Assembly: GCA_945863085.1 (NCBI GenBank)
Contig: CAMBCD010000110.1
Span: forward strand, 1 to 8,197
Reading direction: 5' to 3'
From: Bordetella parapertussis
GTDB taxonomy: Bacteria; Pseudomonadota; Gammaproteobacteria; Burkholderiales; SG8-41
Length of the DNA stretch: 8,197 bases
Under the pieces are notes generated by a model. The model was not told the origin of the DNA, did not search any database, and worked only from the letters and a program-made list of their open reading frames with translations. The translations under genes and the position numbers were made by a program. This document shows positions 1,916-7,172 of this stretch, one piece after another (positions within the stretch are counted from its first letter, which is position 1; every line of letters begins with the position of its first letter).

Positions 1916-2074
1916 ATGAACAAACTGTTTGCCGCCATTATCGCCGCCGCTTTCGCCACCGTTGCTGTTGCCCCGGCGTACGCCGCTGATGCGAAAAAAG
2001 AAGAGAAAAAAGAAGAGAAAAAGGCCCCCGCCAAGGCTGAGAAAAAAGCCGAGAAAAAAGCCGACAAGAAGTAA
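1916..2074 (+). CDS. Small exported Lys/Glu/Ala-rich peptide (52 aa)
   Basis: The reading frame from ATG 1916 to TAA 2072-2074 gives 52 residues. A Shine-Dalgarno GAGG (1907-1910) sits 5 nt before the ATG. The N terminus MNKLFAAIIAAAFATVAVAP is a clear Sec signal peptide; AYA-A gives a signal-peptidase I site after residue 23. The predicted mature chain is only about 29 residues and almost wholly Lys, Glu, Ala and Asp, with repeats of KKEE and AEKKAEKKADKK. It contains no Cys and no aromatic residue, and should be highly charged and either helical or disordered. It has its own leader and terminator. A second gene 204 nt downstream encodes a similar precursor, so the two are tandem paralogues. 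I do not recognise a named family; composition recalls acid-shock-type periplasmic proteins, but no homology can be claimed. Export to the periplasm is a confident inference, function is unknown. Confidence 0.75.
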   Translation: MNKLFAAIIAAAFATVAVAPAYAADAKKEEKKEEKKAPAKAEKKAEKKADKK

Positions 2075-2277: not shown

Positions 2278-2427
2278 ATGAAGAAACTGCTCGCAATTGC
2301 ATTTGCTGCAATGTTCTCGGTCGTGTCCGTTGCTCCGGTGTTTGCAGCCGAAAAGAAGGAAGCTGCAAAAGTGGACTGCAAGGACGCAAAAAACAAAGAC
2401 AATAAAGCCTGCAAAGCAAAGAAATAA
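2278..2427 (+). CDS. Small exported Lys-rich peptide with two Cys (49 aa)
   Basis: ATG 2278 to TAA 2425-2427 encodes 49 residues. A strong Shine-Dalgarno AAGGGAGG (2266-2273) lies 4 nt before the ATG. MKKLLAIAFAAMFSVVSVAP is a Sec signal peptide, with VFA-A giving a cleavage site after residue 23, the same length as in the upstream paralogue (shared VAPxxAA junction). The mature chain is about 26 residues, rich in Lys, Asp and Ala, and contains Cys34 and Cys45 (VDCKDAK and KACKAK). The two Cys are 11 residues apart and could form a disulfide in the periplasm or bind a metal or cofactor; neither can be shown from sequence. The gene has its own leader and terminator. I do not recognise the family. 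Precursor architecture, ribosome-binding site and terminator together make it a real gene. Confidence 0.78.
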   Translation: MKKLLAIAFAAMFSVVSVAPVFAAEKKEAAKVDCKDAKNKDNKACKAKK

Positions 2428-4216: not shown

Positions 4217-4825
4217 TTATTCTGGCGCTGTATCCCTGAATGACTGGCGCTGCGCAAGTTTGTCGGCGAGACGCGCCAAGTTCGGATGATTGCGCCGCCA
4301 CGGCAGATCCGGCAGCCGCAATTCCATCCAGCCCAGGCAGCAGCCGACGGCGATGTCGGCCAATGAAAAAAAGTCGCCGGTGCACCAGTTTTTTGCCGCG
4401 AGGTCATCGGCCATCATCTGCAGCGCGCGGTCCACCTTGCCCTGCTGGCGTGCGATCAACTCAGGCGACTGCTGCTCCACCGGACGGCGTTTTTCCGCCA
4501 GTACCGCGATCGCGGCGTCCGTGCACCCGTCGGCCAGCGCCTCCCAGCGCCGTGCCTGGATGCGCGGGCGTTTCTCCTCCGGAATCAGCCGGTTGCCCGG
4601 GCTGGCATTGTCCAGGTATTCGGCGATCACCCGTGAATCAAACAAGGTGCTCTCGTCGTCCAGCACCAGCACCGGTATTTTTCCCAGCGGATTGTATTGA
4701 GTGACCGTGCTGTTGTCGGTATTCGGCGCATCGACAACAAATTCACATTCCAGGCGTTTTTCGGCAAGGACGACGCGCACCTTGCGGGTATAGGGACTGG
4801 TGGCAGTCCCGATCAGCTTCATCAT
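4217..4825 (-). CDS. Glutathione S-transferase, YibF-like
   Basis: Cytosolic GST fold: thioredoxin-like N-terminal domain followed by an all-helical domain, 202 residues as usual for the family. The N terminus LIGTATSPYTRKVRVVLAEK carries the glutathione-site Ser10 region. GKIPVLV contains the conserved cis-proline (Pro51), and FDSRVIAEYL contains the glutathione-binding acidic-Ser pair. In the helical domain WEALADGCTDAA and the N-capping box SLADIAVGC (154-162) are seen. Overall it resembles E. coli YibF, whose physiological substrate is not established. Start: two adjacent ATGs (4825 and 4822); neither has a Shine-Dalgarno, so the choice is uncertain by one residue. It converges on mnmA and diverges from the putative selenoprotein glutaredoxin gene, sharing a 150-bp regulatory region; a common role in thiol redox or detoxification is a reasonable inference. 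Confidence 0.93.
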   Translation of the reverse strand: MMKLIGTATSPYTRKVRVVLAEKRLECEFVVDAPNTDNSTVTQYNPLGKIPVLVLDDESTLFDSRVIAEYLDNASPGNRLIPEEKRPRIQARRWEALADGCTDAAIAVLAEKRRPVEQQSPELIARQQGKVDRALQMMADDLAAKNWCTGDFFSLADIAVGCCLGWMELRLPDLPWRRNHPNLARLADKLAQRQSFRDTAPE

Positions 4826-4844
4826 ATGGATTTTTACGCGCTAT

Positions 4845-4878
4845 GTTGCGAGGCGATGTTGCGGGATAAGTTGCGGGG
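4845..4878 (-). repeat. Three tandem GTTGCG repeats in the GST leader
   Basis: On the + strand GTTGCG occurs at 4845-4850, 4858-4863 and 4870-4875, each followed by an (A/G)GG-like stretch, with spacings of 13 and 12 nt (on the GST mRNA: three CCCGCAAC-like units). They lie between the predicted GST promoter and its ATG. Near-helical spacing suggests protein-binding half-sites or an mRNA-level element. The repeats are seen directly; function is unknown. Confidence 0.45.
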
Positions 4879-4892
4879 TAAAAAGCGCGCGG

Positions 4893-4901
4893 ATTATAAC
4901 A
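4893..4901 (-). promoter_or_regulatory. Extended -10 promoter of the GST gene
   Basis: On the minus strand TGTTATAAT (plus 4901 down to 4893) is a perfect extended -10 element (TGn-TATAAT). No good -35 is present at 16-18 nt, as is usual for extended -10 promoters. Transcription should begin near 4886, leaving a leader of about 60 nt. The region 16-18 nt upstream overlaps the palindrome at 4918-4930. Confidence 0.6.
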
Positions 4902-4910
4902 TCGCGATCC

Positions 4911-4939
4911 TTGACGCCCGGCAATGCCGGTCGTAGTCT
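4911..4939 (+). promoter_or_regulatory. Candidate promoter with internal palindrome, upstream of the glutaredoxin gene
   Basis: TTGACG (4911-4916; five of six -35 bases) and TAGTCT (4934-4939; weak -10) are exactly 17 nt apart. The spacer contains CCGGCA-A-TGCCGG (4918-4930), a perfect 13-nt palindrome that looks like an operator. The same palindrome covers the -35 region of the divergent GST promoter, so a single regulator could control both genes. Predicted transcription start is near 4946. Confidence 0.45.
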
Positions 4940-4975
4940 TGCCCTTCACCCCCACCGCCTCCCGAAAGGTCACAT

Positions 4976-5746
4976 ATGGGCGCCATCGAACAGTTCATCC
5001 TCTTCACCCAACCCGGGTGAAGCAGCTGTCTCCGGGCGAAAGAGTTTCTTTCGCGCAAAAAAATTGATTTCATCGCCATCGACGTACTGAACGATCCGCA
5101 GGGCCGTGAACGTCTGCTGAAGTTCGGTGTGCGCAATGTTCCGGTCGTCGCCAAGGGCGATCAGTTTGTGTTCGGCCAGAACCTTGAAGACGTTGCGGAG
5201 TTTGTCGGCCTGCAGGGCACCGGCCACAAACCGCTGCCGCCGCAAGAGCTGATCAAGCGCTGGGTGATGGTGCTGCGCACCGCGCAGCGGCTGATGCGCC
5301 AGCTGCCAGACGCGCAACTGACGGAACGCGTGATCCCCAATCGCGACCGCTCGATCCGCCTGATGTGCCATCACATCTTCCGCATCGGCGAAGCCTTCCT
5401 CGAATCCGTCGAAGGCGGTGTCGAATATGCGGTGCAGCTCGCCAACATGCCGCCGAAAGACGGCGAGTTCATGAGCGGCGACGAAATCGCGCGTTACGGT
5501 GACACCATCATCGCGCGGCTCGAGAACTGGTGGAACAGGCTCGAGGACAAATCCTGCCAGCAGAAAATCAAGACCTTCTTCGGCATGCAGCCCATCTACA
5601 TGCTCTACGAACGTTCGACCTGGCACAGCGCCCAGCACGGACGGCAACTCGCCGCAGTGCTGGAACGGGTGGGCATCACACCCGACCGGCCGCTGACGGC
5701 GGAACAACTGGCGGGCTTGCCGCTGCCCGAGAGACTCTGGGAATAA
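4976..5746 (+). CDS. Putative selenoprotein: glutaredoxin-like (Sec-x-x-Cys) domain fused to DinB-like domain
   Basis: ATG 4976 has a Shine-Dalgarno AAAGG (4965-4969) 6 nt upstream; the frame is closed above by TAG 4934. It reads MGAIEQFILFTQPG, then TGA (codon 15), then SSCLRAKEFLSRKKIDF and on to TAA 5744-5746: 256 residues if the TGA is decoded as selenocysteine. Residues 5-79 have the thioredoxin/glutaredoxin order: a beta strand (QFILFTQ), the redox motif PG-U-SS-C (15-18), a helix, IDFIAIDVLNDP, and the cis-Pro loop NVPVV (Pro56). TGA replaces the N-terminal, nucleophilic Cys of CxxC. Residues 90-256 are helical and DinB-like, with possible metal ligands His133 and the HxxxH pair His217/His221 (WHSAQHGRQ). 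A hairpin follows the TGA. The intact downstream frame and coherent fold argue against simple decay, but a TGC/TGT-to-TGA nonsense mutation or sequencing error remains possible. A start at GTG 5129 would lose the active site. Substrate unknown; a glutathione- or thiol-dependent reaction is inferred from the fold and the GST neighbour. Confidence 0.8.
5018..5020 (+). other. In-frame TGA, probable selenocysteine codon
   Basis: The TGA is codon 15 of the frame opened at 4976, flanked by Pro-Gly before and Ser-Ser-Cys after. In the glutaredoxin CxxC motif this is the catalytic, solvent-exposed Cys, the position where selenocysteine replaces cysteine in known thiol-oxidoreductase selenoproteins. 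One base change would give TGC or TGT (Cys). Confidence 0.75.
5036..5054 (+). promoter_or_regulatory. SECIS-like hairpin downstream of the TGA
   Basis: GCGAAAGA (5036-5043), loop GTT (5044-5046), TCTTTCGC (5047-5054): a perfect 8-bp stem within the coding sequence. The stem starts 15 nt after the TGA and the loop lies 24-26 nt after it, within the range known for bacterial SECIS elements, where SelB binds a small apical loop containing G and U. The loop here begins with G-U. Sequence resemblance to the E. coli fdhF element is otherwise low, as is usual for bacterial SECIS. Confidence 0.6.
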
Positions 5747-5778
5747 TCATTAAAATATTCATTTTAAATCAATGACTT

Positions 5779-5806
5779 AAAACGGCGCTCCAAGGCGCCG
5801 TTTTTT
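5779..5806 (+). terminator. Terminator after the glutaredoxin/DinB gene
   Basis: AAAACGGCGC (5779-5788), loop TCCAAG, GCGCCGTTTT (5795-5804), then TT: a perfect 10-bp stem ending in a T6 run. It lies 33 nt after the TAA and isolates this gene from the amidase. Confidence 0.92.
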
Positions 5807-5816
5807 CGGCCTGCAA

Positions 5817-5846
5817 TTGACGCCCGCTTCGCCATGCAGTGATACT
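5817..5846 (+). promoter_or_regulatory. Candidate amidase promoter
   Basis: TTGACG (5817-5822), 18 nt, GATACT (5841-5846; four of six). Predicted start of transcription near 5853 gives a leader of about 33 nt before ATG 5886. Its -35 box coincides with the TTG that would otherwise extend the amidase frame, which argues for the downstream ATG. Confidence 0.45.
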
Positions 5847-5885
5847 CGAACGGATTCAACAACCCCTCCTTTGCCGCCACTCCCC

Positions 5886-7172
5886 ATGCAAACCAAAGCC
5901 TTGCACCAATACACCGCAACTGAAATCGTCAGCGCCATTGCTGCGGGACGGACCACAGCCACCGCTGTCGCCGAATCCTGCCTCGAACACATCGCACAAC
6001 GTGAACCGCAGGTTGCAGCCTGGCATTACCTTGATCCACAGCTGGTGCTGGCCCAGGCGCGCGAACTCGACAAACGCGGCACCACAGGGCCGCTGCAGGG
6101 CGTGCCGGTGGGCATCAAGGACATCATCGACACGGCCGACATGCCCACCGAATACGGCACCCCCATCCACCGCGGACACCGGCCGCGCATCGACGCCACC
6201 TGCGTCGCACTCACCCGCCGCGCCGGCGGCCTGATCATGGGCAAAACCGTGACCACCGAGTTCGCCAATTTTTTCCCGGGCAAAACCCGGAACCCGTTTG
6301 ATCCGCAACGCACCCCCGGCGGTTCGTCGAGCGGTTCGGCCGCAGCTGTCGGCGCCGGCATGGTGCCGCTGGGTGTGGGCACACAGACCACCGCATCGAC
6401 CATCCGCCCGGCAGCGTTCTGTGGCTGTGTCGGTTACCGCCCGACCTGGGGCGACCTGCGTTGTGCCGGCGTGATGGAAGCTTCAGGCTCACTCGACACG
6501 CTGGGCCTGATAACACGCAGCGTTGAGGATGTCGCCCTGTACCGCGATGTGTTGCTCGGCGTCACGCCGGTGGCACTGCCCGCGGACAACGCCCCGCCGC
6601 GCATCGGTTTCTGCCGCACCCACATCTGGAACCAGTGTGAACCCGAAACCCAGCAGCTGCTTGAAACCTGTGCGAGCCGTCTGGCGCAGGCCGGTGCAAC
6701 TGTGTCCGACGTCACGCTGCCCGCGGAGTTTTCACGCATTGAAGACGCGCACCGCTGGATATCCAGTTTTGAATTCGCCCGCAACCGCGCCTGGGAAATC
6801 GACCACCACTGGGAGATGATCAGCGAGCGGCTACGCAACAACCGGATCCGCGACGGTCTGGACTGCAGCTACGAAACCTACCGCGATGCGCGCGATTTCC
6901 TCGAACGGCAGCGACTCGCGTTCGACGACCTCATGGCGGATTACGACGTGCTGCTGACTCCCGCCGCAGCCGGCGAAGCACCGCTGGGACTGCATGCGAC
7001 AGGCAACGCCTCGTTCTGCGCAATCTGGACCAGCATGCATGTGCCGGCGGTCACATTGCCGCTGTTCGAGGGCCCCAACGGATTGCCGGTCGGCACCCAG
7101 CTGATCGCCCGCCGCAACAATGACCGCCGGTTGTTCGTGGCGGCGCGCTGGGTGCAACGCGCCTCAAGCTGA
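5886..7172 (+). CDS. Amidase-signature family enzyme
   Basis: Amidase-signature hydrolases cleave amide (sometimes ester) bonds with a Ser-cisSer-Lys triad. The product has 428 residues. Lys78 is in VGIKDIIDT, the cis-Ser is Ser147 in TPGGSSSGSAAAV, and the nucleophile is Ser171 in GTQTTASTIRPAAFCG; the 24-residue gap between the two Ser matches the family. The usual Gly-Gly before the nucleophile is Thr-Ala here, a change in the oxyanion strand. The segment CGCVGYRPTWG and the C-terminal ALPLFEGPNGLPVGTQLIARR-type closing region (here PLFEGPNGLPVGTQ) are normal. Start: ATG 5886 gives MQTKALHQYTATEI, the expected first helix; the in-frame TTG 5817 lies in the promoter. No Shine-Dalgarno is seen. 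It ends 9 nt from the convergent Bug-family gene. It is not GatA, since no GatB/GatC neighbour is present; the substrate cannot be told from sequence. Confidence 0.92.
   Translation: MQTKALHQYTATEIVSAIAAGRTTATAVAESCLEHIAQREPQVAAWHYLDPQLVLAQARELDKRGTTGPLQGVPVGIKDIIDTADMPTEYGTPIHRGHRPRIDATCVALTRRAGGLIMGKTVTTEFANFFPGKTRNPFDPQRTPGGSSSGSAAAVGAGMVPLGVGTQTTASTIRPAAFCGCVGYRPTWGDLRCAGVMEASGSLDTLGLITRSVEDVALYRDVLLGVTPVALPADNAPPRIGFCRTHIWNQCEPETQQLLETCASRLAQAGATVSDVTLPAEFSRIEDAHRWISSFEFARNRAWEIDHHWEMISERLRNNRIRDGLDCSYETYRDARDFLERQRLAFDDLMADYDVLLTPAAAGEAPLGLHATGNASFCAIWTSMHVPAVTLPLFEGPNGLPVGTQLIARRNNDRRLFVAARWVQRASS

What the first reader, a model, noticed from the sequence alone, without database searches (positions are those of the whole stretch)
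4976..5746. Probable unannotated selenoprotein: glutaredoxin-like domain with UGA at the catalytic Cys
Seen: an ATG with a good Shine-Dalgarno opens a frame that meets TGA at codon 15 and then continues for 241 sense codons. The TGA falls exactly at the first Cys of a CxxC glutaredoxin motif (PG-TGA-SSC), and the residues on both sides form one coherent glutaredoxin fold. Known: Sec-for-Cys replacement at this position is the hallmark of thiol-oxidoreductase selenoproteins, and glutaredoxin-type cases have been reported in bacteria. Inferred: the UGA is recoded. Standard gene calling would start near GTG 5129 and drop the active site, so the protein would be recorded as a DinB-like fragment.
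Basis: partly seen in the sequence, partly recalled or inferred. Interest (0 to 1): 0.95.

Follow-up and report, generated by a model that had tools for sequence, protein, structure and literature searches.

The report
Hidden selenium-containing glutaredoxin–DinB enzyme
This bacterial gene has a stop codon exactly at the catalytic site of a two-part redox protein, and because in relatives that stop goes together with an almost unchanging sequence behind it and with the selenocysteine machinery, it is likely read as selenocysteine; the related database entries examined here lack that active site, so this predicted selenium enzyme has been overlooked.

Summary
The 256-codon frame at 4976-5746 has TGA at codon 15 (5018-5020), at the first Cys of a glutaredoxin motif, fused to a DinB/thiol-transferase-type domain. 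Of 100 distinct homologous sites the codon is TGA in 91, TGC in 8, TGT in 1. All 91 TGA sites, down to about 25% protein identity, hold a near-invariant hairpin sequence 16 nt after the UGA; 0 of 9 Cys sites do. One further TGA site has the same hairpin with a compensated outer pair. The window's hairpin meets four published bacterial SECIS criteria. Of 31 relatives' genomes, SelA is in 31, SelB 31, tRNA-Sec 30, SelD 30; the gene is within 9 kb of selB in 25. The window's own genome is not held, so its sel genes are inferred. No such family is among 119 listed in a 2026 inventory or over cut-off in NCBIfam. All 120 listed database relatives lack the active site. Function is inferred; selenium is untested.

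The parts
4976..5746 (+). grx-dinB gene (256 codons, one in-frame UGA)
5018..5020 (+). in-frame TGA, residue 15, predicted selenocysteine (first position of UxxC)
   Evidence: Cys at this column in 9 of 100 distinct sites
5027..5029 (+). Cys18, second Cys of the UxxC motif
   Evidence: C in 100 of 100 aligned homologues
5036..5054 (+). predicted SECIS hairpin: arms 5036-5043 and 5047-5054, apical loop GUU 5044-5046
   Evidence: criteria
4966..4969 (+). Shine-Dalgarno-like AAGG
   Evidence: sequence
4997..5170 (+). glutaredoxin domain (residues 8-65)
   Evidence: PF00462; model and fold search
5276..5650 (+). DinB_2 / S-transferase-like domain (residues 101-225)
5372..5374 (+). His133, predicted metal ligand
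   Evidence: 100 of 100 homologues
5624..5638 (+). HxxxH, His217 and His221, predicted metal ligands
   Evidence: all three His together in 95 of 100 homologues

Best explanation
The gene encodes a glutaredoxin-DinB fusion whose first active-site residue is an in-frame UGA, likely decoded as selenocysteine by SelB with the help of a predicted hairpin whose loop lies 23 nt downstream. Shown: UGA/Cys exchange at one column, a frozen hairpin sequence, and linkage and co-occurrence with the Sec machinery in relatives. Inferred: the SelB-GTP-Sec-tRNA complex binds the hairpin and inserts Sec at codon 15, giving a protein of about 29 kDa. Its N-terminal Grx domain would use Sec15-Cys18 as a fast selenol/thiol redox pair on glutathione mixed disulfides. 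Its C-terminal DinB domain would hold a divalent metal on His133, His217 and His221 and activate a small thiol, most likely glutathione. The two would work together as a selenium-dependent thiol-transfer and thiol-repair enzyme under electrophile or oxidative stress. The divergent thioredoxin-reductase-like flavoprotein behind selB in many relatives is a candidate electron donor.
For: TGA in 32 of 32 orthologs and 91 of 100 distinct sites, Cys in the other 9. The 17-nt core is at the same offset in 91 of 91 TGA sites (86 exact, 3 with an A to G that keeps a G-U pair, 2 with a loop change) and 0 of 9 Cys sites; the one TGA match that missed the pattern has the same hairpin at the same offset with its outer C-G pair changed to U-A. 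In 74 genomes of one family all 100 copies of the core lie inside TGA grx-dinB matches, reversed-pattern control 0; in an order draw of 399 genomes 44 of 45 do, control 2, the other copy being part of a terminator-like repeat. bSECIS criteria met by the window (loop 3 nt, 8-bp stem, G first in loop, spacing 23, -12.3 kcal/mol). SelA 31 of 31, SelB 31 of 31, tRNA-Sec 30 of 31, SelD 30 of 31. SelB in 26 of 28 genomes with a TGA form and 3 of 8 with only a Cys form, Fisher p 0.0026; 26 of 28 against 77 of the other 371, p 9e-15. grx-dinB within 9 kb of selB on one contig in 25 of 31. Both sides of the UGA evolve as coding sequence. AlphaFold model pLDDT 87.6 with both folds. Database contrast: 0 of 120 listed relatives of the Sec form hold the active site, 120 of 120 of a Cys form do.
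Against: No protein or selenium data. The window's own genome is not held, so selABCD there is inferred. The generic SECIS criteria are loose: 41 of 160 synonymously recoded controls and 4 of 9 Cys forms also meet them somewhere, and 2 of 91 TGA sites do not meet them by my script; the weight rests on the frozen core. The hairpin's folding z-score is only -0.56 in the 50-nt stretch and -1.19 in the 40-nt stretch (-3.45 for the 28-nt hairpin), and with a near-invariant stem there is one compensatory pair only. Two of 28 TGA genomes show no SelB, one of 31 no tRNA-Sec over cut-off, one of 31 no SelD; nearly all are MAGs, but completeness was not tested. Three of 8 Cys-only genomes do have SelB. 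Five distant TGA paralogues lack the second and/or third His, so metal binding is not universal. Function is inferred from domain kinship only.
Confidence: 0.93

Rival explanations
1. The UGA is a real stop: the 14-codon leader ends there and the cell makes only a DinB-type protein from an internal start, as databases record it.
For: The 120 listed relatives are annotated this way, 192-238 aa, that is with starts from about residue 19 to 65; GTG 5129 is a possible start. Partial termination with internal initiation cannot be excluded as a second product.
Against: Codons before and just after the UGA evolve as coding sequence; Cys homologues read straight through and keep the whole active site; codons +6 to +11 are frozen where the UGA is present and not in the Cys forms; presence tracks SelB.
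Confidence: 0.04
2. UGA is decoded as another residue (Cys or Trp) by a variant tRNA or a reassigned code.
For: Cys occupies the column in 9 of 100 sites; variant tRNAs that put Cys at Sec codons are reported from other bacteria (recalled, no call).
Against: UGA still ends genes here: mnmA, the pseudouridine synthase and the amidase of the window end in TGA, and several TGA-form relatives end in TGA. ARAGORN calls tRNA-SeC(tca) at 13 of 14 cluster loci; the tRNA scores 73-78 bits to RF01852, cut-off 47, in 30 of 31 genomes. SelD, itself with a TGA, is present.
Confidence: 0.02
3. Assembly error or decaying pseudogene.
For: A stop inside a frame is the usual sign of decay.
Against: The same TGA in 32 of 32 orthologs with no second stop or frameshift and in paralogues down to about 25% identity.
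Confidence: 0.01

Closest known systems
Selenoprotein glutaredoxin (Grx, UxxC; entry WP_010943784.1 in the 2026 inventory); structures titled cGrx1 (7c10, 7c12), which I recall as from Clostridium oremlandii
   Different: The known form is listed as a Grx; here it is fused to a DinB domain, in Burkholderiales, with a sequence-frozen hairpin
Cys-form glutaredoxin-DinB proteins (Paraburkholderia, Ramlibacter, Xylophilus, Herminiimonas among the named ones)
   Same: Same two-domain architecture; nine read here are 36-47% identical with Cys in place of the UGA; 120 of 120 listed hold a GCxxC motif
   Different: Cys codon instead of UGA, no hairpin core (0 of 9), annotated full length (254-283 aa), SelB in only 3 of 8 sampled genomes that have only this form
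UXX-star and HUGP/GUXX-star Grx-like selenoproteins (NF041212, NF041211, NF041114, NF045501)
   Same: Grx-like selenoprotein models with weak matches
   Different: All below their cut-offs (41.2, 29.2, 24.2 and 21.4 bits against 66, 100, 72 and 325); the matches cover the Grx part only
DinB / S-transferase-like superfamily (BstA, mycothiol S-transferase, maleylpyruvate isomerase)
   Different: Fused to a Sec-Grx; thiol substrate and activity unknown

Membership tests
Bacterial selenoproteins (UGA-encoded Sec) | In-frame UGA at a redox position conserved in homologues | tested here: met
   TGA in 91 of 100 distinct sites, Cys codon in 9, no TAA or TAG
Bacterial selenoproteins (UGA-encoded Sec) | Homologues with Cys at the same column | tested here: met
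   9 of 9 no-stop homologues read have Cys; 120 of 120 listed hold GCxxC
Bacterial selenoproteins (UGA-encoded Sec) | bSECIS: loop 3-9 nt, stem 4-16 bp, G in the first two loop positions, spacing 16-37 nt, MFE at most -7.5 (PMC13188914 Fig. 2A legend) | tested here: met
   GUU loop, 8 bp, G first, 23 nt, -12.3 kcal/mol; criteria are loose, 41 of 160 controls also pass
Bacterial selenoproteins (UGA-encoded Sec) | selA, selB, selC, selD in the window's own genome | tested here: inconclusive
   Own genome not held; present in 30-31 of 31 relatives' genomes
Bacterial selenoproteins (UGA-encoded Sec) | Selenium in the protein | not testable with these tools
   needs 75Se labelling or mass spectrometry
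Glutaredoxin (PF00462) | Profile over cut-off, CxxC-type motif, conserved Pro, fold | tested here: met
   49.4 bits against 22.9; U/C15, C18 and P56 in 100 of 100; fold
Glutaredoxin (PF00462) | Glutathione-disulfide oxidoreductase activity | not testable with these tools
   needs a purified protein
DinB / S-transferase-like superfamily (PF12867) | Profile over cut-off, helical-bundle fold, three-His site | tested here: met
DinB / S-transferase-like superfamily (PF12867) | Metal-dependent transfer of a small thiol | not testable with these tools
   needs a purified protein
Uxx-star glutaredoxin-like (seleno)proteins (NF041212) | NCBIfam curated cut-off | tested here: not met
   41.2 bits against 66

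The most novel reading that the evidence does not exclude
A two-site selenoenzyme: the Sec of the glutaredoxin domain hands glutathione or electrons straight to a metal-bound thiol site in the fused DinB domain, the first selenium-dependent metallo-thiol transferase; and its SECIS is a sequence-frozen, gene-family-specific signal for SelB in a Burkholderiales lineage where no listed formate dehydrogenase carries a UGA.
Probability: 0.25. Interest if true: 0.82.

Novelty: new variant of a known kind. Interest (0 to 1): 0.66.

Why it matters
It adds a two-domain selenoprotein family, with up to four UGA-containing copies in one genome (G058, G576), to the Betaproteobacteria, for which a 2006 survey counted one selenoprotein family (PMC1794560, passages). 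It offers a reason for uncultured Burkholderiales to keep the Sec machinery, since formate dehydrogenase, the usual client there, shows no UGA in any match listed. The 120 database relatives listed lack the active site, so a redox enzyme is being missed. The hairpin, fixed in sequence and offset in proteins only about 25% identical, is an unusual natural experiment on how narrow a SelB recognition signal can be, and a ready probe for more members.

Tried and rejected
Sole-selenoprotein idea: after grx-dinB looked like the only selenoprotein of the lineage; then selD proved to carry a TGA in 30 of 31 listed matches, the other being a fragment, and UGSC-type genes with TGA lie close by in some genomes, so the idea was dropped. 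Rfam on 4700-5900 gave one sub-threshold hit, no SECIS. The 17-mer in G534 outside any grx-dinB gene sits in a terminator-like repeat. The generic SECIS criteria alone do not discriminate. Direction of Sec/Cys change: one change on a quick tree, support 73, root unknown, so not concluded. The class draw was too broad (2 of 369 genomes). My first selA distance, about 0.3 kb past the window's end, came from G001 alone; searches give about 1.3 kb in G002 and G003, so a range is now given. Literature: searches listed no Grx-DinB selenoprotein. Of PMC13188914 I read two of three parts of section 7 (with Table 1) and passages; of PMC1794560, PMC2398784, PMC5330540, PMC9312934 and PMC10950700 passages only; the other listed papers as listings. 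The library lacks most subscription journals and all bioRxiv preprints.

Full report
What is there. The frame ATG 4976 to TAA 5746 has one in-frame TGA at codon 15 (5018-5020) and 241 sense codons after it. With the TGA read as a residue the protein has a glutaredoxin domain (PF00462, residues 8-65) and a DinB_2 domain (PF12867, 101-225), both over Pfam's cut-offs. The TGA stands at the first Cys of the glutaredoxin motif, TQPG-U-SSC.

Is the frame translated across the TGA? Window against 31 orthologs: the nine codons before the TGA show 105 synonymous and 17 non-synonymous differences in 279 comparisons; the first five after it 44 and 0 in 155; codons +6 to +11 none at all in 186; codons +12 to +37 250 and 136 in 806. 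The 5' leader read in the same frame shows 27 and 217 in 279. Selection thus acts on the protein on both sides of the TGA. In 32 of 32 orthologs the codon is TGA and the next stop lies at the end of the frame.

Homologues. A genome-contig scan gave 31 loci at 64-95% identity, 30 titled MAG, mostly Betaproteobacteria or Burkholderiales. In 74 genomes of the family of one of them (G001), 67 had a match at E 1e-3; 101 listed matches hold exactly one TGA and none TAA or TAG; the only no-stop matches spanning residue 15 are three weak glutaredoxin-only hits, E 1.6e-4 to 8.3e-4. In an order draw of 399 genomes 36 matched at E 1e-10: 28 with a TGA form and 8 with only a no-stop form; in a class draw 2 of 369, one of them a no-stop form. 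I read 105 sites, 5 of them repeats: of 100 distinct sites 91 have TGA, 8 TGC and 1 TGT. All nine no-stop homologues have Cys at that column. Several genomes carry two to four copies with TGA, some only 24-29% identical to the query. A quick tree with residue 15 masked needs one Sec/Cys change; support is 73 and the root is unknown.

The hairpin. Sixteen nt after the TGA, 91 of 91 TGA sites have CGAA[A/G]GAGT[T/A]TCTTTCG (86 the exact CGAAAGAGTTTCTTTCG); 0 of 9 Cys sites do, although they keep KEFL or KEYL. It can form a 7-bp stem with a GUU loop; in the window an eighth pair is added (5036-5054), -12.3 kcal/mol. One TGA match missed the pattern (G049:C492); read later, it has the same hairpin at the same offset with the outer C-G pair changed to U-A on both sides, the one compensatory change seen. 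The bacterial SECIS model in PMC13188914 (Fig. 2A legend) asks for a 3-9-nt loop, 4-16-bp stem, a G in the first two loop positions, 16-37 nt from UGA to loop and at most -7.5 kcal/mol; the window meets each. By my script 89 of 91 TGA sites meet the model (83 with the loop at 23 nt), 4 of 9 Cys sites do at scattered positions, and 41 of 160 synonymously recoded controls do, but 0 of 160 hold the 17-mer. So the model alone is weak evidence and the frozen core strong. As a comparison, the UGA of selD in the same lineage is followed by a different stem with a GUU or GGU loop at 20 nt in 14 of 16 loci. Genome-wide, 100 of 100 copies of the core in the 74 genomes lie inside TGA grx-dinB matches, reversed control 0. 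In the order draw 44 of 45 do, reversed control 2; the other sits in a terminator-like repeat.

Machinery. In the 31 genomes of the first loci: SelA 31, SelB 31, tRNA-Sec over cut-off 30, SelD 30. In the order draw SelB (E at most 1e-75) is in 103 of 399; in 26 of 28 genomes with a TGA form and 3 of 8 with only a Cys form (Fisher p 0.0026). grx-dinB lies within 9 kb of selB on one contig in 25 of 31; in the other 6 they are on different contigs. In 14 fetched cluster loci, motif or ARAGORN hits are: grx-dinB core 13 (the fourteenth stretch stops short of it), mnmA 10, SelA 13, a thioredoxin-reductase-like CxxC 11, tRNA-Sec 13, in the order mnmA, grx-dinB, selA, (selB, placed), TrxR-like, tRNA-Sec where present (Pfam support). 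The flavoprotein is below the TIGR01292 cut-off in the three tested. The window is collinear with G001 at 87-91% nucleotide identity, apart from an extra stretch of about 2.3 kb behind grx-dinB in G001. selA begins about 0.3 kb past the point matching the window's 3' end in G001 and about 1.3 kb in G002 and G003. The window's own genome is not held, so its machinery is inferred.

Other selenoproteins of the lineage. Formate dehydrogenase alpha shows no stop in any listed match in the 74 genomes (more matches existed than were listed). SelD carries a TGA in 30 of 31 listed matches. A UGSC-family gene with TGA (Pfam, TGA) or its motif sits beside the cluster in some genomes. So grx-dinB is one of several.

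Annotation gap. The 120 database relatives listed for the Sec form are 192-238 aa and 0 of 120 hold the active-site motif. The 120 listed for a Cys form are 254-283 aa, all with PF00462, and all hold GCxxC (119 in the first 45 residues, one with a longer N-terminus).

Known or new. The 2026 inventory of 119 prokaryotic selenoprotein families lists Grx (UxxC), distant Grx-like and UXX-star forms, UGSC and SelD, but none with DinB (Table 1 read; word search). No NCBIfam model reaches its cut-off. I file it as a new fusion variant of Sec-glutaredoxin selenoproteins.

Noticed in passing
window 1916-2074 and 2278-2427 (+): Two small genes in a row for short proteins with signal-peptide-like starts and Lys-rich tails (the second with Cys), each followed by a terminator-like hairpin (read from the sequence).
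   Followed up: no
L146 (7783, -), L145 (7485, - and 13447, +), L150 (6579, -), L020: Genes with an in-frame TGA at a UGSC/UGAC-type motif near the grx-dinB/sel cluster; L146 matches Pfam UGSC, the others are by motif only.
   Followed up: partly
L144:9242-10162, L137:12929-13855, L138:11580-12500: A divergent thioredoxin-reductase-like flavoprotein (CxxC present, below the TIGR01292 cut-off) sits directly behind selB; a candidate partner.
   Followed up: partly
L087, L094, L095, L096, L134: Five distant TGA paralogues (25-28% identity) keep the UxxC motif and hairpin but lack the second and/or third His of the DinB site.
   Followed up: partly
L013, L015, L021, L024: MAG records titled Bordetella parapertussis or Chitinophaga pinensis group with the uncultured Burkholderiales; the titles look wrong.
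   Followed up: partly
L192-L207: selD of the same lineage is itself a UGA gene (SHGGG-U-GCKL) with another hairpin stem but mostly a GUU or GGU loop.
   Followed up: yes
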